Assembly: GCA_004293915.1 (NCBI GenBank) | Contig: RDZG01000087.1 | Span: forward strand, 1-46,556 | DNA length: 46,556 nucleotides | Source of the DNA: Bacteroidota bacterium | GTDB taxonomy: Bacteria; Bacteroidota; Bacteroidia; Cytophagales; UBA9547 | Direction of reading: 5' to 3' | In this document: piece by piece, positions 22,818 through 46,556 of the stretch | Numbering within the stretch: the stretch's first letter is position 1 | Layout: each line of letters begins with the position of its first letter | Program-made: the position numbers and the translations under genes | The notes under the pieces: generated by a model | The model's database searches: none | Told to the model about the DNA's origin: nothing | What the model saw: only the letters and a program-made list of their open reading frames with translations

Positions 22818-23579
22818 TCATTTCCACCATTTTTCATTTTCTTTTGTTTGATATATTTTAGGGTTACCCTTCAATGCATTACTACCATAAGCATTATCGT
22901 AATTTTCCCAACCGTTTTTGATGTACTTTTTATTTATCCAAAACTCTCCAGCTCCAATATCTAGATCACTGCAATCTGGGATTTTAACATCTCCCCAATG
23001 ACATTTTTTTTGTGCTAAAGATTTATAATTTATCCAATTCCCAATAAATAGATTATTATTGAAACTATCTGCCGCACCTCTAAGACAATTGTATCTAAAA
23101 TTATTACTGGGATCTATAATAAAATGACTAGTTAAAGTACCTACAAACATCCCTGAAAATGGCTGATTTGTATTTTCAAATAATTTTAATAGTGATATTA
23201 TTGTGCCACATTTGTATTCAGGAAAATCATCGTCTATAAATATATTCGAGCTTAGTATTGTACATACGCCATTAAACTCACATATATTATTTTTGACTTT
23301 TGTTTTCCCATAAACAAAATATTGAAAAGGGTTATCATAACTTTTAATCAATGAAATTACTTTAAAATGAAATCTTTGAAAATTTTCTCCAATAAAACCT
23401 AAAGGATTACTTAGGCTAATTTTCTCATGAGTTCTTTCGTCATAAATTACACTATCAGGAATCCATATTTTGGCTAAGTCATATTTTTAAATTTGAGAAT
23501 AAAAGTCATTTTTTGCTGTTTGAGCAAATGTTTTTATATCAAAAATCAAAATGATAAATAAAACAATATATAACTTCAT
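22818..23579 (-). pseudogene. Secreted protein of unknown function, interrupted by one in-frame TAA
   Basis: From ATG 23579 the frame encodes a signal peptide (MKLYIVLFIILIFDIKTFAQ) and ten further residues, then hits TAA at 23489-23487 (codon 31). The same frame continues without another stop for over 220 residues to 22818, with natural-looking sequence on both sides ('YSQI' then 'KYDLAKIWIPDSV'). A single CAA or AAA to TAA change would explain this. The downstream part alone (from ATG 23351) would lack the signal peptide. The protein has cysteine pairs and a 'WGDVKIPDCSDLDIGAGEFW' segment. I recognise no family. A sequencing error cannot be excluded. Confidence 0.75.
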
Positions 23580-23620
23580 TTTCAATTTATTTATTCTCCT
23601 TCCACCCTATGGAATATAAT

Positions 23621-24160
23621 TTACCAATTTAGCCTAATTTCTTCTTTTATCATCATTTTGGCAAGTTCATTTTTGCACCATGTTTTTAATATGGAATCTT
23701 TTTTCAAATGTTTATCATAAATAGTTTTGTCTTTCATTTCAATATTATTAAAATAAATTTCAAAACAACAATGCGAATAATTACATGGTTCTATTCTGTG
23801 ATTTAGAAATATTTTTGCAATATTATGAGTTGGAAGCAACGTGTCTGAAAGTTTCTCATATTGATAACTTTCATTTAATTCTTTGATTTCCAAACAGATA
23901 AATGTTTGCTCATCATACTTTACAAATGAATGGAAATTTCCAAAATTGAACAAAACATCTTCTGGTTCAGAAAAAATATTCTCAGTATCATACCCTCGTC
24001 TATTTACAGAAATGTCATAAACAGAAATATAATCAAAAGGATTTAATTTTTCTTCAAGCTTACATCTTCTAAATAAAACCTCTCCAATATTAAAAAATTG
24101 TACTGGATTTCTATTTTTTGAGTGTAATCTTTCTGGTATGTGCTTTAGTTCGCAATTCAC
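23621..24160 (-). CDS. Unknown protein, third gene of a TIGR04255-led cassette
   Basis: The 179-residue protein starts at GTG 24160, 6 bp after the preceding stop. It is soluble, with no signal peptide, and has a 'RLHSKNRNPVQFFNIGEVLF' N-terminal part and a 'YDISVNRRGYDTENIFSEPE' motif, then a histidine/cysteine-rich middle (EPCNYSHCCFEIYF) and a Trp-containing C-terminus. No known family is recognised. Position and spacing tie it to the two upstream genes. Confidence 0.65.
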   Translation of the reverse strand: MNCELKHIPERLHSKNRNPVQFFNIGEVLFRRCKLEEKLNPFDYISVYDISVNRRGYDTENIFSEPEDVLFNFGNFHSFVKYDEQTFICLEIKELNESYQYEKLSDTLLPTHNIAKIFLNHRIEPCNYSHCCFEIYFNNIEMKDKTIYDKHLKKDSILKTWCKNELAKMMIKEEIRLNW

Positions 24161-24166
24161 AAATCG

Positions 24167-24604
24167 CTAAAAAGATAAAAATTTTAAAGCAACTAATTCT
24201 CCATCTACTTCATTTGTAAAGAAATCTAAAACATCTTTTTTAGTAGAATTTTTGTATGAAATAAAAGAATATGCTAGGACTCCATCTTCATTGATAATTA
24301 ATTTTGAAATTCCATTTTCTGATATTCTATTTAAACAAATTTCTCCATCAACTGCATTTGAGAAAGTAAAATATAATCTATTAGGATCCATAACTGATTG
24401 AAGTTTCAAAAAACATACTCGTAATAATTCAATACATTTTATTTGCTCATTAGTCATGCTAAATTTTGTATGTGCAATATCAAAACTTGCATCTAAGTCG
24501 TTCACTAAATTCACAACTAGTGATGGTTCAGAATTTGAAAAATCTTTTTTGTAACTTTCCTTTATACTTTGGGATTCAACGACATTTAATTCTGCAATAT
24601 TCAT
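24167..24604 (-). CDS. Unknown protein, second gene of a TIGR04255-led cassette
   Basis: The 145-residue soluble protein has no recognised domain. The middle reads 'LYFTFSNAVDGEICLNRISE' and continues 'GISKLIINEDGVLAYSFISY', which suggests a small beta-sheet domain after N-terminal helices. Its ATG overlaps the TGA of the TIGR04255 gene by 4 bp (ATGA), implying coupled translation. The third gene follows after 6 bp. Function unknown. Confidence 0.68.
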   Translation of the reverse strand: MNIAELNVVESQSIKESYKKDFSNSEPSLVVNLVNDLDASFDIAHTKFSMTNEQIKCIELLRVCFLKLQSVMDPNRLYFTFSNAVDGEICLNRISENGISKLIINEDGVLAYSFISYKNSTKKDVLDFFTNEVDGELVALKFLSF

Positions 24605-25305
24605 ATATCAAATAATATTTTGGTTTCTAAACGTAAAAGATTTTGGAATAATAAATTTTTGTATTCTCTCAACATTTCAAACATATTAATAATATCTGAG
24701 TTATCCACATTTTTTTCCACAGAAATATCCACAATAACCCTGTTTTTATCATTTATCAACTCCAATTTTTCATTTACAGTTCCATTAATATCATTTTTAT
24801 CATCTTTTGTGGAAAAGTTTAATAAAAATGGACCTTTACTATTAATTAGTTTTGGCATCTCAGGGTAAACAACTAAATATTTTGCTAAATCATATTTTGA
24901 ATCTTCTGGTAAATTAATCATATTCAAAAATCTACATGAAATTTTATTTATATATATTGAGTTATCTAGCAAAACAATATTTTCTAAGGCTTTTATTAAA
25001 TATGGTATTTCTTTTTCCCATCCATCATAAATATCTATTGAATGAAATGAAAGGTGAGAATATTTTAAATTGATTAACTTTTTTTTTCCTGAATTAAATA
25101 AATAACCATCTTTTTTAACTATTTTTTTGGTTTCCATTGAACTATTTACGTTTATTTCAACAGAAATACCTTGGTTGTCTTGTGGGTATGTATTTTTTAT
25201 ATATTCACAACTTCTAAATTTTTCTATTAAATCGTCTGAAATCAATTCCCTAAAGTATACTGTAAAAATTGCTTCTACTATTGGTAGATTTTTATAATTT
25301 TTCAT
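24601..25305 (-). CDS. TIGR04255 family protein (sporadically distributed, function unknown)
   Basis: The 234-residue protein fits TIGR04255: it opens 'LPIVEAIFTVYF', has 'KKDGYLFNSGKKKLINLKYS' and 'YDGWEKEIPYLIKALENI', then 'INKISCRFLNMINLPED', and ends with a 'MLREYKNLLFQNLLR' helix. The family is scattered across bacteria, often in small cassettes, without known function. It starts 8 bp after pgi and is the first of three tightly packed genes, so read-through from pgi is likely. The family call is from memory of its motif order. Confidence 0.78.
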   Translation of the reverse strand: MKNYKNLPIVEAIFTVYFRELISDDLIEKFRSCEYIKNTYPQDNQGISVEINVNSSMETKKIVKKDGYLFNSGKKKLINLKYSHLSFHSIDIYDGWEKEIPYLIKALENIVLLDNSIYINKISCRFLNMINLPEDSKYDLAKYLVVYPEMPKLINSKGPFLLNFSTKDDKNDINGTVNEKLELINDKNRVIVDISVEKNVDNSDIINMFEMLREYKNLLFQNLLRLETKILFDI

Positions 25306-25313
25306 AAAATTTT

Positions 25314-26951
25314 TTATTTATTCTCCTTCCACCAGTTCATCAAACCATTGGTTGAGCTATCGTGAGAGGTAACTTTAGTTGCACCTTCTAGTTCTGGAAG
25401 AATTACTTTAGCCAATTGTTTACCCAATTCTACTCCCCATTGGTCGTAAGGATTTACTTGCCAAATCATGCCTTGTACAAATATTTTATGTTCGTACATG
25501 GCTAGTAATGAGCCCAATACCTTTGGCGTGAGTTTTTTGAACATAATAGAATTTGTAGGTCTGTTGCCTTTAAAAACTTTGTGGGGCAATATTTTTTCTA
25601 ATTCAGCTCCCGATACTCCCGATTTTTCTAATTCAGCCTTTGCTTCGGCAGTCGTTTTTCCTTTCATCAAAGCTTCTGTTTGAGCAAAGAAGTTGGAAAG
25701 TAAAATTTTATGATGCTCTCCCAAAGGATTTTGCGTTTGTGCAGGAATGAAGAAATCGCATGGAATCAGTTTTGTGCCTTGATGAATCAATTGATAGAAA
25801 GCATGTTGCCCATTGGTGCCTGGCTCTCCCCAAATAATAGGACCTGTTTCGTAATCTACTTCTTTGCCATCGCGGGTTACAAATTTCCCATTGCTTTCCA
25901 TGTCTCCTTGTTGGAAATAGGCAGCAAAACGGTGCATATATTGGTCGTAAGGCAATAAAGCATGGCTATGTGCATCAAAAAAATTATTATACCAAATACC
26001 TAATAATGCTAATATTACAGGCAAGTTTTTGTCCCAATCTGCAGTGGCAAAATGGTTGTCCATCTCGTGTGCACCTTGCAAAAGTTCTTCAAAATTATCA
26101 AAACCTATGGATAAAGCGATAGAAAGTCCAATGGCAGACCAAAGCGAATATCTTCCACCTACCCAATCCCAAAATTCAAACATGTTAGCAGTATCAATCC
26201 CAAAAGCAGAAACGGATTTAGCATTGGTAGAAAGAGCCACAAAATGTTTAGCAACCGCTTTTTCGTCTATAGCAGATTTTAAAAACCATGCTTTTGCAAA
26301 TTCTGCATTGGCTAAAGTTTCTTGTGTGGTAAATGTTTTAGATGCAATAATAAAAATGGTAGTTTCTGGATTTACTTTTTTCAATGTTTCGGCTATGTGT
26401 GTGCCATCTACATTACTCACAAAGTGAACGTCTATATTTTTTTTGTAGGGTTTTAGAGCTTCTGTCACCATCACAGGACCTAAATCTGAACCTCCAATGC
26501 CTATATTTACAACATCGGTAATGCTTTTTCCTGAAAAACCTTTCCAAGAACCTGAATGGATTTTTGTGCAGAAATCTTTCATTTGCGCCAATACTTTGTT
26601 TACATCAGGCATCACATCTTTGCCTTCGAAAAGCACAGGTGTATTGCTTCTGTTTCTCAAAGCTGTATGCAAAACAGCTCGATTTTCAGTGAAATTTATT
26701 TTTTCGCCTGTGAACATTTTGCCTGCCCAATCGCCAACGTGCATTTCTTTGGCAAGATTCACTAGCAAGGTCATGGTTTCTTCCGAAATTCTATTTTTAG
26801 AAAAATCTAATAAAATATCGTTGAATTGAACTGAAAATTTTTCAAATCGTTTGCTATCATTAGCAAACATATCTTTCATTTGCAATGGTTTTACTTTTTC
26901 AGCGTGTGCTTTTAGGGCTTTCCACGAATTGGTTTGTGTGAGGTTTGTCAT
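25314..26951 (-). CDS. pgi: Glucose-6-phosphate isomerase
   Basis: The 545-residue enzyme matches PGI over its whole length: '[20 protein letters not shown]', '[17 protein letters not shown]', '[20 protein letters not shown]', '[20 protein letters not shown]', and '[13 protein letters not shown]' near the end. It interconverts glucose-6-phosphate and fructose-6-phosphate. It lies between accessory genes on both sides: HepT-like ends 5 bp upstream and the TIGR04255 gene starts 8 bp downstream. That is unusual for a glycolytic gene and suggests insertion of accessory modules around it. Confidence 0.97.
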
Positions 26952-26955
26952 AAGG

Positions 26956-27351
26956 TTAATGGTATTTTTTAAGGTTTTGTAATAATAATTTCATTGTATC
27001 GCAATATAATGCAAGTTTTGATTCAAGTATAACAATAAAAGCTTCATTATAGGTATGTACTGACAGATTTCTGTTGCTTATAATTTCACTCCAAAGGGCT
27101 TCATCATCGATATAATCGCCAATTAAACTCGATTTGAATACATCTCTAGTAAATGCAATTTTATCGGCTCCTCTGCTTTCTAGTGCTTTTTTTAGGCATT
27201 TCCAAGCAATTTCATAAGTAAATTCAAATCGCTGGATTGTGGCATCTCGCTCAAGTTCTGTTTTATTGGGTTTATAGGCTACTTCAGCAAATTTATTTAA
27301 TGCCTTTTCAAAATCATCAATTTTAAAATGTAAATACCCTGTATCGCTCAT
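26956..27351 (-). CDS. HEPN-domain RNase toxin (HepT-like)
   Basis: The 131-residue helical protein belongs to the HI0074/HepT group of nucleotidyltransferase-partner HEPN proteins ('[20 protein letters not shown]'). The RNase motif Rx4HxY is intact as R94NLSVH99TY101. In the MntA-HepT system the tyrosine of this motif is adenylylated to silence the toxin. Its ATG overlaps the MntA-like stop by 4 bp, and pgi begins 5 bp after its stop, so it shares a transcript with pgi. Confidence 0.9.
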
Positions 27352-27641
27352 AGTTCTTCAAAATTTGACAATGCCACACTCTTAAATCTTTCAGAAACTG
27401 TTTGAAAATCAACAAAATCGTAGAAATACAAGGTGGGTAAATCTTCTAAATCATCTTTAATATCAAATGTCATTCCACGTTCCAGAGGCATTCCAGCATC
27501 AATTCCAACGTCAATATCTGACTTGATTAATTCTGGTTTATTAGCTTGCGACCCAAAAATAAATAATTTGTATGATTTGTCGGGCAAATATTTTGCCACA
27601 ACACCACGAATCATATTTTTTATTTCTTCTTTGCGGGTCAT
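27348..27641 (-). CDS. Minimal nucleotidyltransferase antitoxin (MntA-like)
   Basis: The 97-residue protein carries the GSx10DxD motif as G30S31 ... D42ID44 ('IFGSQANKPELIKSDIDVGI'). In MntA-HepT pairs this domain adenylylates the HEPN toxin. It overlaps the Fic gene end by 4 bp (ATGA) and the HepT-like start by 4 bp, so the three genes are translationally coupled. All expected catalytic residues are present. Confidence 0.9.
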   Translation of the reverse strand: MTRKEEIKNMIRGVVAKYLPDKSYKLFIFGSQANKPELIKSDIDVGIDAGMPLERGMTFDIKDDLEDLPTLYFYDFVDFQTVSERFKSVALSNFEEL

Positions 27642-28993
27642 TTTTGGAGAAATGAAATGAAGTTCTTTATAACTAAAGACATTATACTATTAATTTCAGT
27701 AGCACTTAGATTTTCAGAATACATTTTTTTTATTTCGATTCCTTGTGACATGATAATATATTCGTAATCATTAAATCCAATAGTGATATTTATACTAAAA
27801 TTTGATGGATTTCTAGTTTTTTTGTAACCATTGGCTACATATTTGTATTGAATAACATTAAAGCATATTTTTTCAATGAGGACTTTTTTATCAATAAAAT
27901 CAAAAATTTTTCTTTTGATATAATCGTTCCATTCAAATATCGGATCTATTGAATTTGAGTATGAAATTGAAATAAAATGAGAACAATCTAAGAACAACTC
28001 ATCAAACTGTTTTATCTTTTCATTGAATTTAGAAAATAAAATAAAAACTGATTCGGTTAAAATTCTATTTTGTATATTATAGCTTAATATTTCTAAAAGA
28101 GTATCTTCTTTCTCCAACCCAGCCTTAAACAAAGCAATTTCTTTATCCAAATCACTTTCGTCTTCAATGCTCTCACCTTTTGCTCCTTTGATATAAATAT
28201 TGAGCGAATGAAGCAGTAAATTCCCTAGATATTCTACGATATGTCTTTTTTCGCCAGCATCGGCAAGGCTTAGAGCTTCGTAATAGTTGTTTTTGTCTTC
28301 GTTGCGTACGACTACAGGAGGAAAGCCAGATTTGAGCAAAATCAAATTCATGATCAATCGTGCCATTCTACCATTTCCATCGTCAAAAGGATGAATTTCT
28401 GTAAGTTTATGATGAAACAAAGCGGCAGTTACCAAAGGGTGTATTTCTTTGTTTTCTGCACATTGGTTATACCATTTTATCAATTCCTCCATTAAAAATG
28501 GCGTATCTTCAGGACTGGCATAATAATGAATTTCTCCCGTTTTGGTTTTTACATGATTGGGTTCTTTTTTGTAATCTCCAATCAAAATCATCTTTTTGGA
28601 TGGCAAACCTGATGGAGTAATGGTATCTACTTCATAAGGTTCTACCAAAATTAGCTTATGCAAAGCCCTAATATCTGATTCTGAAATAGAACGCTCGTCT
28701 TTTACCAAATTTAAAATGTAATTTATCCCTTCATTGTGTCCTTTTACATCAAAATGATCTTTCATTGTTTTGCCTTTGGCAGTAATGCCATGCATAATAA
28801 AAGTCAATGTTTCGCCATAGGTATATGGATTTCCTTCAATAGCATTGGAGTGATAATTCCAGTCTAAACGAAATTTTTGTAGAATTTTTTGTTCAATATC
28901 ATTTGGGAATGGCTTTAGAGCGTCCACCTGATTTTTCAGGTTTTCAATTTCTTGAATTAAAGAAGTTTGGCTCAAAAGTTTTTCTAATTCCAT
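27638..28993 (-). CDS. Fic family protein (class II, N-terminal inhibitory motif)
   Basis: The 451-residue protein has the Fic active-site loop H201PFDDGNGRMAR212 complete, preceded by the N-terminal inhibitory motif S49xxxE53G54, so it is a class II, self-inhibited Fic. Fic enzymes usually transfer AMP to Tyr, Ser or Thr side chains of target proteins. The C-terminal ~150 residues may hold a winged-helix or other target-binding part, but I see no clear motif. It is the first gene of a Fic-MntA-HepT set with 4-bp overlaps. Upstream lie the remnants of a YefM-YoeB pair. Confidence 0.92.
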   Translation of the reverse strand: MELEKLLSQTSLIQEIENLKNQVDALKPFPNDIEQKILQKFRLDWNYHSNAIEGNPYTYGETLTFIMHGITAKGKTMKDHFDVKGHNEGINYILNLVKDERSISESDIRALHKLILVEPYEVDTITPSGLPSKKMILIGDYKKEPNHVKTKTGEIHYYASPEDTPFLMEELIKWYNQCAENKEIHPLVTAALFHHKLTEIHPFDDGNGRMARLIMNLILLKSGFPPVVVRNEDKNNYYEALSLADAGEKRHIVEYLGNLLLHSLNIYIKGAKGESIEDESDLDKEIALFKAGLEKEDTLLEILSYNIQNRILTESVFILFSKFNEKIKQFDELFLDCSHFISISYSNSIDPIFEWNDYIKRKIFDFIDKKVLIEKICFNVIQYKYVANGYKKTRNPSNFSINITIGFNDYEYIIMSQGIEIKKMYSENLSATEINSIMSLVIKNFISFLQK

Positions 28994-33908: not shown

Positions 33909-34256
33909 ATGGAACTTTCATTTATAATAGGGAGAAATATTAAAAACTACAGAGAAAAGCTAGGATATAATCAAGAACATATCGCTAGTTTTTTGGGGGT
34001 TGACAGAAGCCTTATTAGTTTTTATGAAAATGCTGAGAGAGAAATTTCAATAGTTCATCTGCATAAAATAGCAGATTTGTTCTGTATAGAAATTGAAGAT
34101 TTAATGGAAGAAAATTTACTTTATAGCAAAGTAGATTTAGCATTTGCATTTAGAGCAGATGGTATATCACAAGAAGATTTGACAAGTATTGCATCTTTTC
34201 AAAAAATTGTAAAAAATTATTTAAAAATGTCTCAATTAGCAGCTTATGAGCAATAA
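33909..34256 (+). CDS. XRE-family repressor, paired with ImmA/IrrE protease (plus-strand copy)
   Basis: The 115-residue protein has an N-terminal XRE helix-turn-helix (about residues 8-62; 'NIKNYREKLGYNQEHIASFL', 'DRSLISFYENAERE'). Its C-terminal tail (LAFAFRADGISQEDL and 'FQKIVKNYLK') closely matches the minus-strand XRE at 42994-43329 (MAFAFRAEGL and 'FKKIVKNYLK'). ImmA-type proteases inactivate such repressors by cleavage, so the conserved tail could be the protease contact or cleavage region; that is inference. It overlaps the ImmA gene by 11 bp. Confidence 0.92.
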   Translation: MELSFIIGRNIKNYREKLGYNQEHIASFLGVDRSLISFYENAEREISIVHLHKIADLFCIEIEDLMEENLLYSKVDLAFAFRADGISQEDLTSIASFQKIVKNYLKMSQLAAYEQ

Positions 34257-34998
34257 GTCAAGACATTTACGGTTTGAAATAGAAAAAAAGGCTTTAGGTT
34301 TTAGGATTGAAAATGGATATAGTTCAACAGAACCCATTCAGTTAGATAGTTTGCTTATCAAGCAAAATGTAATCACAATTTTTAAACCTTTGTCTGGTTC
34401 TCTCGCTGGAATGGCAATTAAAGCCCCAAATGGATTAAAATTTATGATGATAAATCAAAATCATAATTTGGGGAAACAACATTTCACAATTGGACATGAA
34501 CTTTATCATTTATTTATTCAAGAGAATTTTACTTCACAACGATGTATAACAGGGTTATTTGACAAGCAAATTGATATAGAAGAAAAAAAGGCTGATTTGT
34601 TTTCTGCCTGTCTATTACTTCCTGAATCAGGGATTAAACAATTGATACCTGATAAAGAATTTGCGAATAAAAAATCTCTCACAGTTCAAACTTTATTCAA
34701 AATACAGCATTTCTATAAAGTGTCTATGAAAGCAACTATTTTTAGGTTGTATGAATTGGAATTAATAGATGATTCTTACTTTAAAGATTATGAAACAGGA
34801 ATTAAGAGTACAGCCCATAGATTAGGTTTTAATATATCTTTATATGAATCTGGTAACTTTAATAAAATGATTGGTGATTATGGAATTGTAGCAAATCAAC
34901 TTTTTCAGAATGAAAAAATTTCAGAAGCTCATTATTATGAGTTGCTACATGCAATTAATATAGATCCTTTGAAGATTTTACAGAGTGAAAATGAATAA
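34246..34998 (+). CDS. ImmA/IrrE family metallo-endopeptidase (plus-strand copy)
   Basis: The 250-residue protein carries the zinc motif H84ELYH88 within 'QHFTIGHELYHLFIQ' and a downstream 'EEKKADLFSACLLLPE' helix that supplies the third ligand. The C-terminal ~100 residues are also conserved with the minus-strand copy ('NKMIGDYG', 'NEKISEAHYYELL'). It is expected to cleave the XRE partner on a signal and so release repression. It overlaps XRE by 11 bp upstream and the PIN-like gene by 8 bp downstream, giving a coupled three-gene unit. Confidence 0.92.
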   Translation: MSNKSRHLRFEIEKKALGFRIENGYSSTEPIQLDSLLIKQNVITIFKPLSGSLAGMAIKAPNGLKFMMINQNHNLGKQHFTIGHELYHLFIQENFTSQRCITGLFDKQIDIEEKKADLFSACLLLPESGIKQLIPDKEFANKKSLTVQTLFKIQHFYKVSMKATIFRLYELELIDDSYFKDYETGIKSTAHRLGFNISLYESGNFNKMIGDYGIVANQLFQNEKISEAHYYELLHAINIDPLKILQSENE

Positions 34999-35568: not shown

Positions 35569-36738
35569 TTATACAAGCGAACTTGTGGGTAAATTCAATA
35601 GGCTCACAAAATTTAGTATTAATTCATAAGGCAATTTTTCTTGTTCTATTCTCCATCTGTTTTCATTTAGATAATTAAAAAAACTATTTTCTTCTACTGA
35701 TAAATTATTTAGAAAATATTTGTTAGAATATTCCCCATTTTTTTTAGCAATATTTTTATTAGCTTCAAAAGTGGGCTTGTCCATTAAAATGGAAATGGTT
35801 TTATCAAAATAGCCTCTAATTTGAGACAAAATTTCATATCCGTGAGCATCAATATCTCCCCAATAATATAGTTGATTTTCGCTAAGCCAATATGCATTTT
35901 CTAGAGCTGAAAGAGCAAAACCCTTCCCAAAAATAACAATGCCATTTTCAATATTAGGAAAAGAAAGGTAGTTGGTTTTATTTTCTGTTATAAATATTTT
36001 TTTATCTTTAAAATCAAGTTTTTCAAACTCATAGGGTAGTAATACTAGTTCTGATACACAATAATAAGGATACAAATTGGGGTCTAAAAACCGTAATCGT
36101 ATTCTTTCTTTGAGTTCTATATCAAATTTTAAATGATAACGTTTTTCAAATGTTTTTTCTTCTGAATTTATAAAGTCTGGTATAAGAAAATCTAATATAG
36201 AAGCTATAATTGATTTATTTTCCTCAATAAATTTGGTATGAATGTCTATTGGTAGTTCTCTTAAATATTTAATAGGTTTAGGATTTTGTAAAAAAAAACT
36301 GCAAATAGTGAGCAAAACCGACCACTTACCCATATTTTCTGAAATTTTTTCAGGATTTTCTACAAGCCAATTGTTTAAATTAATATTTGAAGCTCTTATG
36401 TTATTTATTTCTGTTTTAAACCTTTCAAACTCTTCTTTTTTATTTACTACATACAAAAAGTCATCTTCTGATTCTATTTCAATTTGTACGGGTACAGACT
36501 GAGTACCCATTTTTTTAGTATTAATGTCTTTTGTATGGACGCAATATCCAATGCCATTTTTATTTTTAGAATCTGAAAAAAGTATTTCAATTTGGTTAGA
36601 TGCTAAAATAAAATCTTTATCTAATAGTTTATTACCTCTAATTTGTTGAGGGAAAAACGATTCGTTCTTAAGCCAAGATTTTAAAAATGGCACATATAAT
36701 TTTAAAGCTATTTTCTTTATTTCTTCTGGTTTGATCAT
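35569..36738 (-). CDS. jetD: Wadjet type I nuclease subunit JetD
   Basis: The 389-residue protein has the DUF3322-DUF2220 layout. The Toprim-like (topoisomerase VI-type) catalytic part at residues ~245-370 shows 'FITE252NKTNYLSFP', 'YYWGD295ID297AHGYEILSQIRGYF' in pieces and the C-terminal 'RIE365QE367' motif. JetD cuts plasmid DNA after the JetABC motor has extruded it. It is the last gene of the operon, 10 bp after jetC, and converges on the PIN-like gene. All catalytic acids are present, so it appears active. Confidence 0.95.
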   Translation of the reverse strand: MIKPEEIKKIALKLYVPFLKSWLKNESFFPQQIRGNKLLDKDFILASNQIEILFSDSKNKNGIGYCVHTKDINTKKMGTQSVPVQIEIESEDDFLYVVNKKEEFERFKTEINNIRASNINLNNWLVENPEKISENMGKWSVLLTICSFFLQNPKPIKYLRELPIDIHTKFIEENKSIIASILDFLIPDFINSEEKTFEKRYHLKFDIELKERIRLRFLDPNLYPYYCVSELVLLPYEFEKLDFKDKKIFITENKTNYLSFPNIENGIVIFGKGFALSALENAYWLSENQLYYWGDIDAHGYEILSQIRGYFDKTISILMDKPTFEANKNIAKKNGEYSNKYFLNNLSVEENSFFNYLNENRWRIEQEKLPYELILNFVSLLNLPTSSLV

Positions 36739-36748
36739 TTCAATTTTT

Positions 36749-39700
36749 CTAGTTTTCTAATTCAGCTAAGGACTCAAACTCACGTTTTTTCTCCATAAAT
36801 TTTTCTTTTGTCAAGTTGTGAACAATGGATTTTTCGCCTAATTTTTTCTCTACATAATGGCAATGTGAAATAAAAGGTTCGGCTATATGTATATTAGTAA
36901 GAGGTGTAATCACCATGAGTTGTAAACCTAACTCTTGGCATAATACCATCAAATATTTCGACATATCTTGGTCGGTTTTGCTAAACGCTTCATCAACAGC
37001 TATAAAACGAAGTGATTTTCGATTGCCTTGCGTAATCCCAAATTGATAGGCAATGGCAGAACAAAGAATAGTGTATGTAAGCCTAGCCGCCTCCCCCCCA
37101 GAGTTTGTGGCTGTATTTTCGTGTGTTTTAAATAGCTTTTTATCTTCTCTGAAATATTCTTTTGCAATAAAATCAAACCAATTACGGACATCGGATACTT
37201 CTTTTCGCCAAGTTTCGTCTTCGTTTAGTTTGGTAATTATAATTTTTATTTTTTCGAAGCATGCAGCTAAAATTTCGTTTCTCTCTTCTTTGGTTGAAAC
37301 TTGCAACCTACTTTGATTTGGCTGCCAAGTATTGAGCATTTCTTTAAAGTCTTGTATTTTTCGGTTTGTAGTTTTTTTGTTTTCTATGGCTATATAAGTA
37401 TCGTATTGTTTTGTGTAAACTATTTTTTTGAGCGATTGATTAATGTTTTCAATATTTTCTACAATCTCTTCTTCATGTTTGTTAAACGATTCTCGATAAG
37501 AAGTCATGGCTTTTATCATTTCTTCATTTAAACGTTTGTTAAATTTTTCTTGATGTTGTTCCAATTCTTCTCCTCTTATTCTTTTGTAAAGGTCTTCATA
37601 TTCTGTTAAACAAACTTGTTCGGTATTGGCTTCCAAATTGATGGTTTCCGACTCCCAACCTAAAAATTTTTGAGCTATTTCTTGTCCAGGTCGTTTGTAT
37701 TTGTTCATTAAAGTAACTAATTCATCATTCTTCGTTTTGATATGATTTTGTTTTTTTTCAATATCTTTTTCAACAATTTCTCTGATTTCTTTTTCTTTAT
37801 TATCAATAAGGTTTAATTCAATTCTATGATCAAAACTAGAGAGATAATTGTTTAATAAATGGCTTTTTTCATCTAATTCAATATGTTCGTAGTTAGAAAG
37901 CAATGATTTTATATTTGATTTCTTATTTTCTAGTTCAGTAGTTTTTTCTTCTAAAACACCTTCATTTTTTGATTCTTGCTGCCTTTGTTTGTCTTTTTCA
38001 GTCCTTTTTTTTTCAACTTCTTTTAGCTGTGCATGCAATTCTTTTAAATGTTGGTTTGCACTTTCGAGTTTTGTAATTTTAAATTCTAACTCTACAATTT
38101 TTTCAGCCTCTTTTTGCCAATTTATTTTTTGATAGTTAGTAAACAAAAGTAAATCTTGAATATTTCTAATATCGCTCTCTATTTCTTCTTGTTCTTTTTT
38201 TAAGGCAAATACTTTTGTATTTGTTGTTTTAACTTTTTCATCCAAAACTTTTAGCTCTTTATGAATAAAAAGTTGTTTTTCTTTATTATCCCAGCCTAGC
38301 ACATATTGGTCTCTGCCTATTTTGTCTTGCCTGTCGTCTTTTTCGTGCCTCTCGCCATTTTTTTGTAATCCTTGTGCTGTTAAAGCTTTTTTAGCAGAAT
38401 TAAATTGAGTAATGTTTTCTACACACAAATAGTCGTATTGCCTTTGAATGGCATTTTCTAGCCAAGTAGCATATTCACTTCTGGAATTAAATTGTAGTTT
38501 ATTAATTAAAAGTCGTGGTTCATTTTCAAGCAAAATATTGGGAGGAAATCTCTTATCTACTTTGTTGTAAATGAGTTTACCTCGCAAATTATGGCTGTTT
38601 ACATATTCATTAACTTGATGATAATATTTTTCTGGCACAACTAAACGCAATCCAAAATTATGTAGCAATTTTTCAATGGCATACTCCCACGTTTCTTTAG
38701 AATCTTCGTTTACTTTTATCAATTCACCTATAAAAGGAATTTCAGATTCTGTAACCTGCAAATGTTGTACAATTTCGTCTCGAATTCGAAGTGATGAAGT
38801 TGGGATATTGCTTTTACGTTTGCACAAATCCTCAAACTCAATTTTCAAATTTTCATATTTTTTGCTCAGTTCTTTTTGCTCACCAATTTTTTCTGCCCAA
38901 TCGTTTTCAGTTTGTAGTTTTTTTGATTTTAAATCATTTAATATTAGATTTGCTTTTTTTATGTTACTTGAAAATCCAATTTCATCAGCAACTTCAGTCA
39001 AATTTGCTTTCAACACACATTTATTATATGCTTCAGCTTCTTTACTTTTTTCAGAATATTTATTTTCGCTTTCAGTTTTTTGTTTTTTGTATTCTTTGAT
39101 AAGTTCATTATCTTTATCGTTATCGATAGCTTTTCTTAAATCTACTTTTTGCTCATCTATAGCAATAATATCTTGTTGTAAAGATTCTAATTTGTCTTCT
39201 ATTTGCTTTTTATCAATGACACAATCAGCTAAAAGTTCCGTGATTCGTAAGTCTTTTTTAACTGCAAAATATGCAGGTACTATTTCCTTAGTTTCTTTAA
39301 GTATTTGTAAATGAGCTTGGTCATTTCTGTAAATTATAGATTTTTCTACTATTGGTGTAAGTAACTCAATCTGTTTTTTTGACTTTTCAATTGCATTGTG
39401 TATGCTTGTGAGCTCCTCAAAATATTTTCGGAGAATTAAATAAGGATCTTTGGTCTCGTCTTCAAAAGTTTTGGCATCCAGCATATTTTCTTTGATAAAT
39501 TTGTCTAGATTATCAAGTAATTTTAGCCCAACAGTCTTGTTGAAAAGGCTCATGCCTTGTTCTGATACTATGCCTAAGCCATCTCTAAATCGCTCTGCAT
39601 ATTCTCTAAAACTATCATGAAATTTGAGTTTAGGATATTTATCTTTTAAGATTTTTTTCCAATTGCGTTGCAAATCAATGTTGTTAAAATCAGTAGCTAT

Positions 39701-40153
39701 TGAAAGTTCGTGCTGGGCAGTGATATATTCTTTTTGTATTTGCCCTGAGCCATACCACCGCACTTGAGCAATAGTTACAAATTGGTTAAGAACAGCATCA
39801 AAAAATCGAGCCAATAAAACCGAATAATGATTTTTTTCTGCACGTAACATATCTATTTTATCGGTTTTGCCAATATGCCCAAAAAAATATGAATCTTCGG
39901 ATCTTCCCCCTTTTTTGGTTTCAGCACCCTGTGCTTGATTATAATGCAATTTTCCTTTCGGCACTAAAAGTGTGAGCAAGCCATCAACAAGCGTAGTTTT
40001 GCCAGAACCACTAGCTCCTGTAAGCAATGTAGTTTCTCCATTGGGCTCTATTTTGTGAATGATGCCATCAAACGTACCCCAATTATACACCTCAAAACTC
40101 ATCAGCCTAAAGCCTTGGTTTGCGTTTTCATTATTGAATAGTGTCCATTCCAT
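36749..40153 (-). CDS. jetC: Wadjet SMC-like ATPase JetC
   Basis: The 1134-residue protein is an SMC/MukB-like ATPase: Walker A G46ASGSGKT53 near the N-terminus, two long Lys/Glu-rich coiled-coil stretches (about 260-450 and 640-900) around a hinge-like centre, the signature motif 'NSGGEAARLTY' near residue 1018 and Walker B 'FIAVDEAFSK' with D1054 and E1055. It extrudes DNA loops and with JetA and JetB recognises small circular DNA. Its ATG lies 23 bp inside jetB, implying coupled translation. Confidence 0.95.
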   Translation of the reverse strand: MEWTLFNNENANQGFRLMSFEVYNWGTFDGIIHKIEPNGETTLLTGASGSGKTTLVDGLLTLLVPKGKLHYNQAQGAETKKGGRSEDSYFFGHIGKTDKIDMLRAEKNHYSVLLARFFDAVLNQFVTIAQVRWYGSGQIQKEYITAQHELSIATDFNNIDLQRNWKKILKDKYPKLKFHDSFREYAERFRDGLGIVSEQGMSLFNKTVGLKLLDNLDKFIKENMLDAKTFEDETKDPYLILRKYFEELTSIHNAIEKSKKQIELLTPIVEKSIIYRNDQAHLQILKETKEIVPAYFAVKKDLRITELLADCVIDKKQIEDKLESLQQDIIAIDEQKVDLRKAIDNDKDNELIKEYKKQKTESENKYSEKSKEAEAYNKCVLKANLTEVADEIGFSSNIKKANLILNDLKSKKLQTENDWAEKIGEQKELSKKYENLKIEFEDLCKRKSNIPTSSLRIRDEIVQHLQVTESEIPFIGELIKVNEDSKETWEYAIEKLLHNFGLRLVVPEKYYHQVNEYVNSHNLRGKLIYNKVDKRFPPNILLENEPRLLINKLQFNSRSEYATWLENAIQRQYDYLCVENITQFNSAKKALTAQGLQKNGERHEKDDRQDKIGRDQYVLGWDNKEKQLFIHKELKVLDEKVKTTNTKVFALKKEQEEIESDIRNIQDLLLFTNYQKINWQKEAEKIVELEFKITKLESANQHLKELHAQLKEVEKKRTEKDKQRQQESKNEGVLEEKTTELENKKSNIKSLLSNYEHIELDEKSHLLNNYLSSFDHRIELNLIDNKEKEIREIVEKDIEKKQNHIKTKNDELVTLMNKYKRPGQEIAQKFLGWESETINLEANTEQVCLTEYEDLYKRIRGEELEQHQEKFNKRLNEEMIKAMTSYRESFNKHEEEIVENIENINQSLKKIVYTKQYDTYIAIENKKTTNRKIQDFKEMLNTWQPNQSRLQVSTKEERNEILAACFEKIKIIITKLNEDETWRKEVSDVRNWFDFIAKEYFREDKKLFKTHENTATNSGGEAARLTYTILCSAIAYQFGITQGNRKSLRFIAVDEAFSKTDQDMSKYLMVLCQELGLQLMVITPLTNIHIAEPFISHCHYVEKKLGEKSIVHNLTKEKFMEKKREFESLAELEN

Positions 40154-40745
40154 TTTCTGCGATTTTATCTAAAATTTCTGAAAGAACTTCATTACTAATT
40201 TTTGCTTTTATGATGCGTTTTATTTCAAAAACAGTGTCTTCTGGAGCTTGTTTATTGTCTTTATAAATCTCCAAAAAACCCATATCTTTAACTTTATTAA
40301 TGTGCTCATCAAGTTTTTTGATAAATCCAGAACGATTTGTTTTTTCTATAAAAAAAAGTTCGATATGTTCTTTTATTTCTTTTCGAGTTACACACAATCT
40401 ACTAGCTTCGGTTCCAGAAATATCAAACTCTTCAAGCCAATTTCTCAAAAAAACCAATAAAAGCGAAACTTCATAGCTTAGTTTGTGTCTTGCAACTAAT
40501 TGTGGAATTTTTATTTTGGCATCTTCGGGTTGTTCAGGTTGCGAAAGATAGGCATAGCCATCGCTATCGTTTAAAACAAGTTCTAACCCAATTTGGGAGA
40601 AATATTCATGAATGGGGTTGTGAAATGCTAATAAATCATTCCAGACTTTATCATCTGAACTCACTACACCTTGCAACAGTCGAATTACTGCTGGAGCAAA
40701 ATCTTTAATTTTGGTGGGCTTGTTTTTTATTTCTTCGTTTTCCAT
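40131..40745 (-). CDS. jetB: Wadjet MukE-like subunit JetB (DUF4194)
   Basis: The 204-residue protein matches DUF4194: 'PQLVARHKLSYEVSLLLVFL' and 'RNWLEEFD', then 'TRKEIKEHIELFF', 'FIKKLDEHINKVKDMGFLEI' and 'EIKRIIKAKI'. It is the MukE/KITE-like winged-helix subunit that joins the kleisin and the ATPase. ATG 40745 overlaps the jetA stop (TAATG). A TTG three codons earlier is not needed. Confidence 0.94.
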   Translation of the reverse strand: MENEEIKNKPTKIKDFAPAVIRLLQGVVSSDDKVWNDLLAFHNPIHEYFSQIGLELVLNDSDGYAYLSQPEQPEDAKIKIPQLVARHKLSYEVSLLLVFLRNWLEEFDISGTEASRLCVTRKEIKEHIELFFIEKTNRSGFIKKLDEHINKVKDMGFLEIYKDNKQAPEDTVFEIKRIIKAKISNEVLSEILDKIAENGMDTIQ

Positions 40746-42199
40746 TAGGCACAAAAAATTATTTTAGGTGTTTTATATCTTGTGTGTTGGTTTGTATGAA
40801 TGTAATCAAACTCATCGTTCTTTATCAAATATTTTTTATTTGTAGAAGCAATAGAAAAATAGGTCATCAATTCTGCAAGACCTTGATTTATAGGAAATTG
40901 AACGATTACTTCTTGTAAAGTTACTATTGGTTTTTCTTTTAATAATGTACTAATATTTGCTTCTAATTTTTCTTTATTTATTGCAAAACCTGCATATAAC
41001 CTTTCAAAATTCATTTCTTCTAGCTCATTAGTTGTTATGGGCTTTGTAAGTTGAAGGTTCTCATGTTCGCTTTCCGAAATCTGTTTTTGCATTGGCAAAT
41101 CAATATTGGGTTTGCCTTCAATTTCAATTTCAAAATCATTGGGTGGAGTATCTACAATTTGTAAAGCACGTTCTCTAATGGCTGCAATGATTTGAAATGC
41201 TTTTTTATGTTCCTGCAAGTTTTTTTCGCTTAATGTTCGATTTAATTTTTCAATAATTAATCTCAAATAGCTATCTACATCTTCAGCGGCATGAAACAAA
41301 TGAGTTTTTATTTTGGGCAAAAACTTGTCATTCGTATCTATGCCTCTTTGTTTCATTAGCTCGAAAACTTCTTCTACCAATTTTCTTAATTGATTATTGC
41401 CAGAATCATGTGTTAGAAAATCCCAAAATGCATAAAAACTCTTGGCTTGGTCTTTTTCTTTCATCTCTTCAAGAGAATCAATGGTAAAAGCTAAAATATT
41501 GCCTTTAGTGGTATCTGCTTTTGCATGCTTTTCATAGATTTGCTTTCTAATGTCTTTAAAATTTTCTTTTACTTCATTAAAATCTGCGAGTAGTTCTCTT
41601 GAAATTCTATTGACATCAAAATACCTTTCTTTTATTTCAGTATCTGAAAAAGTAGCAACTTTTTCATTAAGCAATATTTCACGTATTTGAGTATCGATTT
41701 CTCGCTTTTTATTTTCTAGTTCAGCTATTCGTTCTTTAGGATTTTCGTTGCTTTTTTCAATAATTTCGGCTAGTTTCTTGATTATATCTTGGAATCGAGA
41801 CTCTGTGCCTACAAACTCCTTACGTTCTAAACTTTCAATAAACTGAAATACTTTTTCTGTATATAAAGTTAAACTATGTAAATGTCCTCCCTGATTGTCA
41901 GGGTATTTTGTAATCCAGCTATTTTTTGTCCATTCTTCTAGGTATCGTTTAGCGCGACTTTCAAAATCTTCAAATAGTATCAGTGAAGATTCATTTTCGA
42001 TAGCATTTTCTTGTAAAAAATATGATAATTTGGAAATTAGAGTTTGATTCAAAACAGAAAGAATGGCATTTTCTTTAAATTCTTGATATAAGAATGCAAT
42101 TATAAAATAAGCATTATCTGCATTTAACAATCTTATGGCTGGGTTTCCATCCTGATGTTTTGATTTAAAAAGTTTCTTACAATCTCCAATTTTTAACAT
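40745..42199 (-). CDS. jetA: Wadjet kleisin-like subunit JetA (DUF3375)
   Basis: The 484-residue protein is a DUF3375 member with an N-terminal winged-helix part, 'RYLEEWTKNSWITKYP', 'LERKEFVGTESRFQDI', the 'RIAELENKKREIDTQIREIL' coiled coil and a C-terminal helical domain. It corresponds to the MukF-like kleisin of the JetABC motor. It is first in the jet operon, 90 bp after the ImmA/IrrE gene on the same strand. Together the four genes give a complete type I set. Confidence 0.94.
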   Translation of the reverse strand: MLKIGDCKKLFKSKHQDGNPAIRLLNADNAYFIIAFLYQEFKENAILSVLNQTLISKLSYFLQENAIENESSLILFEDFESRAKRYLEEWTKNSWITKYPDNQGGHLHSLTLYTEKVFQFIESLERKEFVGTESRFQDIIKKLAEIIEKSNENPKERIAELENKKREIDTQIREILLNEKVATFSDTEIKERYFDVNRISRELLADFNEVKENFKDIRKQIYEKHAKADTTKGNILAFTIDSLEEMKEKDQAKSFYAFWDFLTHDSGNNQLRKLVEEVFELMKQRGIDTNDKFLPKIKTHLFHAAEDVDSYLRLIIEKLNRTLSEKNLQEHKKAFQIIAAIRERALQIVDTPPNDFEIEIEGKPNIDLPMQKQISESEHENLQLTKPITTNELEEMNFERLYAGFAINKEKLEANISTLLKEKPIVTLQEVIVQFPINQGLAELMTYFSIASTNKKYLIKNDEFDYIHTNQHTRYKTPKIIFCA

Positions 42200-42289: not shown

Positions 42290-42994
42290 TTAAACTTCTA
42301 TAAATATGTCTTGAAGTAAAGAAATATAATGTGATTCTGAAATTTTTTCATTTTCAAATGCTTCTTCCAAAAGCTTTTTGTAATCTCCTATAACTTTATT
42401 TTCGTTTCCTTTTCTATATAATGAATAATCAAATCCAAGTTCTATACATTTTTCTGAAATATTGATTTGTTTTAGTTCTTCATATTTTATTTTATCTATA
42501 ATTCCCAAATTAAATAACCTGTATATCAATGCTTTATGCGAACATTGAAACAATTGCTCAAGTCTTAAAATGGTGTTTAAAGAAATATTTTTCTGTTCAA
42601 ATTCATTTTCAGGAATTTCGGCATATATTTTATCTTCAGGAAGCATCAAATACATAGCAAACAAATCTGCTGCATATTCTATTTTATCTTTTTTATCAAA
42701 CATGCCTGTTTTTGAAGTTTCGGAAACAAAATCATCTTGCTCAAACAAATGGTATAATTCATGGCAGATGGTAAAATTTTGCCTTCCAATGGAATGGTCG
42801 CTGTTTACCATCATAAATCGATGGTTATTTGTTTTTATAGCCATTCCAGAAATAAAAGATTCGCTTCCTCCAGGTAAAAAAACGGTCAATACTTTTTTCT
42901 TTTCTAAAATTTCATGAAATTTTAGTTTTTCAAATCTTTTAAAACCTGCATTTTCTCTAAAAAGTACCGCTTGTTTTTTAATGATATGCTCCAT
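42290..42994 (-). CDS. ImmA/IrrE family metallo-endopeptidase upstream of Wadjet (minus-strand copy)
   Basis: The 234-residue protein has H78ELYH82 in 'QNFTICHELYHLFEQ' and the 'IEYAADLFAMYLMLPE' third-ligand helix, and it aligns with the plus-strand copy over most of its length ('NKVIGDYK', 'NEKISESHYISLL'). It would cleave its XRE partner and derepress the operon. It starts with a TAATG overlap at the XRE stop and lies 90 bp before jetA, so transcription from the XRE promoter probably continues into jetABCD. Confidence 0.93.
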   Translation of the reverse strand: MEHIIKKQAVLFRENAGFKRFEKLKFHEILEKKKVLTVFLPGGSESFISGMAIKTNNHRFMMVNSDHSIGRQNFTICHELYHLFEQDDFVSETSKTGMFDKKDKIEYAADLFAMYLMLPEDKIYAEIPENEFEQKNISLNTILRLEQLFQCSHKALIYRLFNLGIIDKIKYEELKQINISEKCIELGFDYSLYRKGNENKVIGDYKKLLEEAFENEKISESHYISLLQDIFIEV

Positions 42995-46391: not shown

Positions 46392-46556
46392 ATTATGAAT
46401 TATGAATTAATTTTTTTTAAATAAATTTTGTTCTAATAGATTATATTTTCGAAATTTTTATCAATTATCAATTATCAATTATCAATTATCAATTATCAAT
46501 TATCAATTATCAATTATCAATTATCAATTATCAATTATCAATTATCAATTATCAAT
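46392..46556. repeat. Heptamer repeats: ATTATGA pair and a long perfect ATTATCA array
   Basis: 46392-46405 holds two ATTATGA units right upstream of hslV. From 46460 to the end of the window the sequence is a perfect tandem run of the 7-bp unit TCAATTA (about 13.7 copies, still continuing at the edge). The unit belongs to the family seen at 673-704, 1347-1377, 4850-4880 and 5041-5178. Confidence 0.95.

What the first reader, a model, noticed from the sequence alone, without database searches (positions are those of the whole stretch)
23621..25305. Three-gene cassette led by a TIGR04255 protein
TIGR04255 proteins are scattered and have no assigned role. Here one is coupled by a 4-bp overlap to a 145-residue unknown protein, followed after 6 bp by a 179-residue unknown protein. 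Compact, mobile, conserved-in-order cassettes of unknown proteins in an island with several toxin or defence modules are good candidates for an undescribed system.
Basis: inference. Interest (0 to 1): 0.65.

Follow-up and report, generated by a model that had tools for sequence, protein, structure and literature searches.

The report
Modular three-gene toxin-like TIGR04255 cassette
Next to a sugar-metabolism gene of an uncultured Bacteroidota bacterium sits a mobile-looking three-gene cassette whose first protein family, with no role that I could find in print, recurs in other bacteria followed by a small partner and an exchangeable third protein that is sometimes a known RNA-cutting toxin, so it may be an undescribed three-part toxin or phage-defence system.

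Summary
Confirmed: three minus-strand genes at 23621-25305 with the stated overlap and gap; gene 1 scores 55.6 bits for TIGR04255 (cut-off 30); genes 2 and 3 match no family above a cut-off. Of 50 intact TIGR04255 genes gathered, 49 have a tightly spaced same-strand ORF downstream and 45 have two, against 32 and 17 of 55 control ORFs. The order is conserved; the third gene is not one family: window-type (Ser and two His invariant), PemK/MazF toxin, HEPN-like, or unnamed families. I read gene 3 as an exchangeable effector or toxin, gene 2 as its fast-evolving partner (antitoxin or adaptor), and TIGR04255 as the constant sensor or regulator. The cassette looks inserted: an exact 21-bp copy of the pgi 3' end lies on its far side; one congener has a diverged cassette at the same spot, another a PADLOC candidate defence pair. 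A related cassette lies near an integrase-like ORF in a viral contig; others lie in BREX and type I restriction loci, but enrichment near defence genes was not shown. Toxicity, neutralisation and phage defence are untested. No paper in the held library contains 'TIGR04255'.

The parts
24601..25305 (-). gene 1, TIGR04255 family protein, 234 aa; proposed constant sensor/regulator
   Evidence: 55.6 bits, cut-off 30; fold model pLDDT 73, pTM 0.76
24167..24604 (-). gene 2, 145 aa, no known family; proposed antitoxin or adaptor, overlaps gene 1 by 4 bp
   Evidence: 38% identical to its G065 counterpart while genes 1 and 3 are 69% and 64%
23621..24160 (-). gene 3, 179 aa (GTG start), no known family; proposed effector/toxin with conserved Arg31, Ser51, His121, His130
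   Evidence: 17 relatives: Ser 17 of 17, each His 16 of 16 with a residue there, Arg31 15 of 17
25313..25333 (.). 21-bp direct repeat, copy within the 3' end of pgi
23586..23606 (.). 21-bp direct repeat, second copy on the far side of the cassette; proposed insertion scar
25314..26951 (-). glucose-6-phosphate isomerase (pgi) gene (name recalled, not profile-tested); its 3' side is the variable spot

Best explanation
The three genes form a mobile, tripartite toxin-antitoxin-like (possibly anti-phage) module. Gene 3 is the effector or toxin, probably an enzyme acting on RNA or a nucleotide-type substrate; gene 2 is its cognate antitoxin or adaptor; the TIGR04255 protein is the constant third component that senses a trigger and holds the pair in check, or acts as its transcriptional regulator. 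On a trigger (phage protein, or loss of the module) gene 2 is released or degraded and gene 3 stops growth. Shown: gene order, its recurrence, known toxins in the third position of sibling cassettes, signs of insertion. Inferred: every biochemical and physiological step.
For: Order: 49 of 50 intact TIGR04255 ORFs have one and 45 have two chained downstream ORFs (recounted) against 32 and 17 of 55 control ORFs of 200-300 aa; same-strand ORF close upstream in 11 of 50. Third-position PemK/MazF toxin, PF02452 at 1.1e-14, 55 bits, cut-off 23.1, in the one family member scanned of five clustered loci; HEPN-like in two clustered loci, one scanned (Pfam E 0.0043, below cut-off; PADLOC HEPN_IX 4.9e-6). 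Gene 2 and gene 3 clusters travel together: gene-2 cluster 1 goes with gene-3 cluster 0, the MazF, D and HEPN cassettes each have their own gene-2 cluster. Gene 3 of the window has an invariant Ser and two His among 17 relatives. Gene 2 evolves fastest, as reported for the antitoxin of CmdTAC (PMC11618068, passages seen). Mobility: 21-bp repeat; dS of cassette genes 1.1-2.1 against 0.49 for the adjoining pgi; plasmid copies.
Against: No expression, toxicity or phage data exist. Gene 3's model is poor (pLDDT 52), so no fold or catalytic class is known; no PDB relative. HEPN assignment is below Pfam's cut-off. Kinship between the window's gene 3 and the other HxxI-motif third genes is not shown (hhalign probability 1.4%). 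Gene 2 of the window resembles no known antitoxin. Enrichment near defence genes was not shown: named systems were seen in 4 of 19 test loci, but also in control loci (CRISPR, IetS, type I specificity). A Rhodococcus plasmid copy has only a second, HTH-bearing gene annotated and no annotated third.
Confidence: 0.5

Rival explanations
1. Sensor-effector immune module without a true antitoxin: genes 1 and 2 together recognise phage and switch on gene 3, which is not toxic at rest.
For: Exchangeable effectors behind a constant protein is the layout of known sensor-effector defences (recalled). Cassettes lie in BREX loci (L087: BrxHI, PglZ, BrxA; L106: BrxL) and type I restriction loci (L088, L103), a related cassette is in a viral contig, and the same spot in a congener holds a PADLOC candidate pair HEC-01A/B (E 3.5e-136 and 1.6e-40).
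Against: MazF/PemK as third gene is normally toxic unless neutralised; defence neighbourhood not shown to exceed control.
Confidence: 0.25
2. Selfish addiction module of plasmids and islands with no defence role.
For: Known addiction toxins (PemK/MazF) in the third position; six plasmid records carry TIGR04255; sporadic distribution: 24 of 395, 16 of 298 and 13 of 114 genomes in three overlapping samples.
Against: A third constant 250-aa protein is not needed for simple addiction.
Confidence: 0.15
3. Not a conflict module: a small regulatory or metabolic operon that happens to be mobile; operon-like spacing is common in compact genomes.
For: No functional evidence; 17 of 55 control ORFs also have two chained ORFs downstream.
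Against: 45 of 50 against 17 of 55; known toxins as third gene; third gene exchanged on the gene 1 tree (16 changes for 13 labels, least possible 12).
Confidence: 0.1

Closest known systems
TIGR04255 (NCBIfam sporadTIGR04255)
   Same: Gene 1 is a member by the curated score (55.6 bits, cut-off 30).
   Different: The family has no role in its model description, and 0 papers of the held library contain the name. The link to two further genes is added here.
Toxin-antitoxin-chaperone (TAC) systems such as CmdTAC
   Same: Three small adjoining genes; one constant component with variable toxins; fast-evolving antitoxin (PMC11618068, passages seen).
   Different: Gene 1 has no SecB match in Pfam up to E = 1 and its model matches TATA-binding protein-like folds, weakly; gene 3 has no detected kinship with a known toxin.
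MazEF / PemIK type II toxin-antitoxin
   Same: Sibling TIGR04255 cassettes carry a PemK/MazF protein as third gene (cluster of five loci).
   Different: The window's gene 3 is not PemK/MazF; known MazEF are two-gene systems (recalled).

Membership tests
TIGR04255 | score above the curated cut-off of 30 bits over most of the model | tested here: met
   55.6 bits, profile positions 2-244 of 252
TAC (toxin-antitoxin-chaperone) systems | SecB-like chaperone gene | tested here: not met
   no SecB family among Pfam matches of genes 1-3 up to E = 1; structural comparison inconclusive
TAC (toxin-antitoxin-chaperone) systems | toxin neutralised by antitoxin only with the chaperone | not testable with these tools
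   needs expression tests
MazEF / PemIK | PemK/MazF-family toxin | tested here: not met
   window gene 3: no PF02452 match up to E = 1; met in sibling cassette L007
Known or candidate anti-phage systems of PADLOC-DB 2.0.0 | profile match of any of the three proteins | tested here: not met
   no match up to E = 1 for genes 1-3
TATA-binding-protein-like fold (gene 1) | structural match well above unrelated rows over most of the protein | tested here: inconclusive
   Foldseek best E 1e-4 with TM-score 0.27; TBP Z about 7, arginine kinases Z about 8; viral TFIID-like proteins among the top rows

The most novel reading that the evidence does not exclude
TIGR04255 proteins are the constant sensor of an undescribed, modular three-part bacterial immune system found in at least five phyla, into which different effectors have been plugged, including PemK/MazF and HEPN-like RNases and a new effector family with an Arg-Ser-His-His signature, to which the window's gene 3 belongs.
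Probability: 0.33. Interest if true: 0.82.

Novelty: new variant of a known kind. Interest (0 to 1): 0.62.

Why it matters
It turns a protein family without an assigned role into a testable three-gene system, offers several candidate effector families with no known relative, and predicts which gene should be toxic and which should neutralise. If it defends against phage, it would be a modular system missed by current defence catalogues (no PADLOC match).

Tried and rejected
Gene-3 fold: AlphaFold2 with four sequences gave pLDDT 52, pTM 0.39, too poor to search; not used. PDB sequence searches with gene 3, a TIGR04255 profile A1 and a mixed third-gene profile A6 gave 0, 0 and 5 matches, the last at E 0.078 or worse and judged chance.

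One superfamily for all third genes with a Ser and an x-H-[ASVN]-x-I motif: profile comparison of the RHANI/AHA set with the window set aligned the motif but at probability 1.4%; pairwise cluster comparisons reached at most 31%. Dropped as a claim of ancestry.

Class B ('CD' motif) was grouped by eye; its five scattered places on the gene 1 tree are therefore not used as evidence of exchange. The window-type class needs 5 changes, of which strongly supported branches force 3; one row of it (L067) repeats the gene 1 of L079 by my error, so it counts 14 different rows. Overall labels are strongly clustered (16 changes, shuffled mean 32.9), so exchange is real but not frequent.

Defence neighbourhood: 95 proteins around 19 cassettes (20 fetched; L105 dropped because my profile did not find its gene 1) matched 230 PADLOC families, 100 proteins from 20 control stretches matched 143; only the first 25 families are printed per table, one control stretch happened to hold a CRISPR locus, and loci overlap in genome; no enrichment is claimed. 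A DpdF match was not placed.

Upstream control used a slightly different rule (at least 60 aa) from the downstream chain (at least 50 aa); therefore repeats the downstream rule on control ORFs. Rows dropped before the count of 50: duplicates and re-fetched loci, broken or partial gene 1 (L024, L075, L084, L086), L067 (same cassettes as L079), and loci my profile did not find (L028, L073, L078, L085). Of these L073 has the full order, L078 (25 bits, below cut-off) has a different downstream gene, L085 (26.5 bits, below cut-off) is followed by two other ORFs, L024 and L075 have genes 2 and 3 behind a gene 1 split by stops. Of the five rows with fewer than two chained ORFs (L025, L026, L065, L079 minus strand, L083), reading the sequence of L025, L065 and L083 shows a third gene; L026 is a near copy of L025; the L079 row is cut by the locus end.

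Empty site: the sequence beyond the far repeat was sought in both congeners; it was not found beside pgi there, so the uninterrupted site was not recovered.

Full report
What is there. The window is contig C112 of a 3.85-Mb Bacteroidota genome. On the minus strand, 8 bases after the stop of pgi, start three genes of 234, 145 and 179 codons. Gene 1 is TIGR04255; genes 2 and 3 match nothing above a cut-off.

Signs of insertion. The last 21 bases around the pgi stop are repeated exactly at 23586-23606, beyond gene 3. In the whole window no other exact direct repeat longer than 16 bases has copies 200-3000 bases apart. In the congener G065 (contig of 11,083 bases, the same length as REAG01000220.1, a Cytophagales bacterium MAG) the same three genes stand behind pgi, 69%, 38% and 64% identical, while pgi is 95% identical. 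Synonymous distances are 1.1, 1.1 and 2.1 for the cassette genes and 0.49 for pgi, which suggests separate acquisition. G065's gene 1 has no usual start codon at the expected place, so it may be damaged. In the third genome of the genus (G020) pgi is followed instead by an ATPase and a DUF4276 protein that match PADLOC's candidate HEC-01A and HEC-01B. The 3' side of pgi is thus a variable spot; the empty site was not recovered.

Recurrence. TIGR04255 matched 24 of 395 genomes of the phylum, 16 of 298 of one order and 13 of 114 of another (samples overlap; 23, 15 and 12 above the cut-off). A mechanical chaining script found one tightly spaced same-strand ORF after 49 of 50 intact TIGR04255 ORFs and two after 45 of 50; the same rule applied to 55 ORFs of 200-300 aa in 20 control stretches gave 32 and 17. 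A close same-strand ORF upstream was found in 11 of 50. Searched independently, gene 2 matched 3 of 291 genomes of the order (own, G065, G128), all in the three-gene order (gene 1 of G128 is below the TIGR04255 search's reach, as that genome is not among the hits's companions, but scores 96 bits with my own profile). Gene 3's profile matched 6 of 345 genomes: own, G533 and G523 strongly, all beside TIGR04255; G402 weakly (E 0.0027), in a three-gene operon behind glutamine synthetase whose first gene my TIGR04255 profile does not detect; G566 and G385 weakly, in a long open frame and a frame with stops, whose surroundings I did not read.

The third gene varies. phmmer clustering of 52 third proteins (mostly taken from TIGR04255 loci, so their neighbourhood is by construction) gives 9 clusters and 7 singletons: the window family (17), an 'RHANI' family (6), PemK/MazF (5), a 'SFWR' family (4), an 'AHA' family (4), smaller ones and a HEPN-like pair. 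The PemK member scanned passes Pfam's cut-off; the HEPN member scanned does not, but matches PADLOC's HEPN_IX at 4.9e-6. In the window family Ser51 is invariant (17 of 17), His121 and His130 are present in all 16 rows that reach that far, Arg31 in 15 of 17. On a tree of 50 gene 1 rows (48 different) the 13 third-gene labels need 16 changes, least possible 12, shuffled mean 32.9: mostly inherited together, sometimes exchanged. Gene 2 clusters follow gene 3 clusters.

Carriers. tblastn found TIGR04255 in 1 and 6 plasmid records with two queries (Crinalium in both; Thermus, Methylocystis, two Rhodococcus, Rhizobium) and in none of 50,697 phage records (gene 3 also none). Five plasmid regions were read: Crinalium, Methylocystis and Rhizobium have three genes, Thermus has a HEPN-like third ORF that is not annotated, Rhodococcus has two annotated genes. 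One IMG/VR contig carries gene 1, 2 and 3 relatives followed by an ORF that looks like a tyrosine integrase by eye (not profile-tested). Of 19 cassettes with wider context, L087 lies beside BrxHI, PglZ and BrxA, L106 near BrxL, L088 and L103 in type I restriction loci. Control stretches also held defence genes, so no enrichment is claimed.

Gene 1 fold. The AlphaFold2 model (pLDDT 73.2, pTM 0.76, four sequences) shows two similar halves of strand-helix-strands-helix. Foldseek ranks TATA-binding-protein chains first (E 1e-4) but at TM-score 0.27; VIA-align gives Z 7 for TBP and 8 for arginine kinases and Mediator chains; the viral library again lists TFIID-like proteins, after an unnamed best hit at E 6.8e-7, TM 0.48. 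I take this as a hint of a duplicated TBP-like arrangement, not as a result.

Mechanism. Known RNase toxins in the third position, a fast-changing second gene that is coupled to the third, and a constant first gene suggest a tripartite toxin-antitoxin-like module. The nearest worked-out analogue is CmdTAC, in which a chaperone senses phage capsid protein and releases the antitoxin (PMC11618068, passages seen). The window's cassette is not a TAC member: no SecB-like gene was found. It may work like one.

Novelty. 'TIGR04255' occurs in no paper of the held library (open-licence PubMed Central only, no supplements). PADLOC 2.0.0 of 2023 has no match. Newer catalogues were not searched.

Noticed in passing
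window 35569-42199: Wadjet-type locus: JetD1 (2.1e-124) and JetC1 (1.9e-302) confirmed; the two ORFs expected to be JetA and JetB were not scanned.
   Followed up: partly
window 27638-28993 and 26956-27641: Fic protein (PADLOC PDC-S04 2.5e-33, SoFic 2e-27) beside a nucleotidyltransferase and HI0074-type substrate-binding pair, a toxin-antitoxin-like unit on the other side of pgi.
   Followed up: partly
window 22818-23588: Gene beyond the cassette, starting with a signal-peptide-like stretch, is interrupted by one in-frame stop.
   Followed up: no
L038 3189-4634 (G020): Candidate defence pair HEC-01A/B 14 bases or so behind pgi, the same spot as the cassette.
   Followed up: partly
L067/L079 (G889): Two TIGR04255 cassettes stand back to back on opposite strands within about 2 kb.
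   Followed up: no
L001 (own genome C21): A second TIGR04255 cassette in the same genome, with different second and third genes (119 and 205 aa), both joined by 4-base overlaps.
   Followed up: partly
window 46458-46556: Tandem array of a 7-base unit (TTATCAA) at the contig end.
   Followed up: no
window 34246-34998 and 42290-42994: Two helix-turn-helix plus M78-type peptidase gene pairs on either side of the Wadjet locus; the first pair is supported by Pfam, the second only by similarity of sequence seen by eye.
   Followed up: partly
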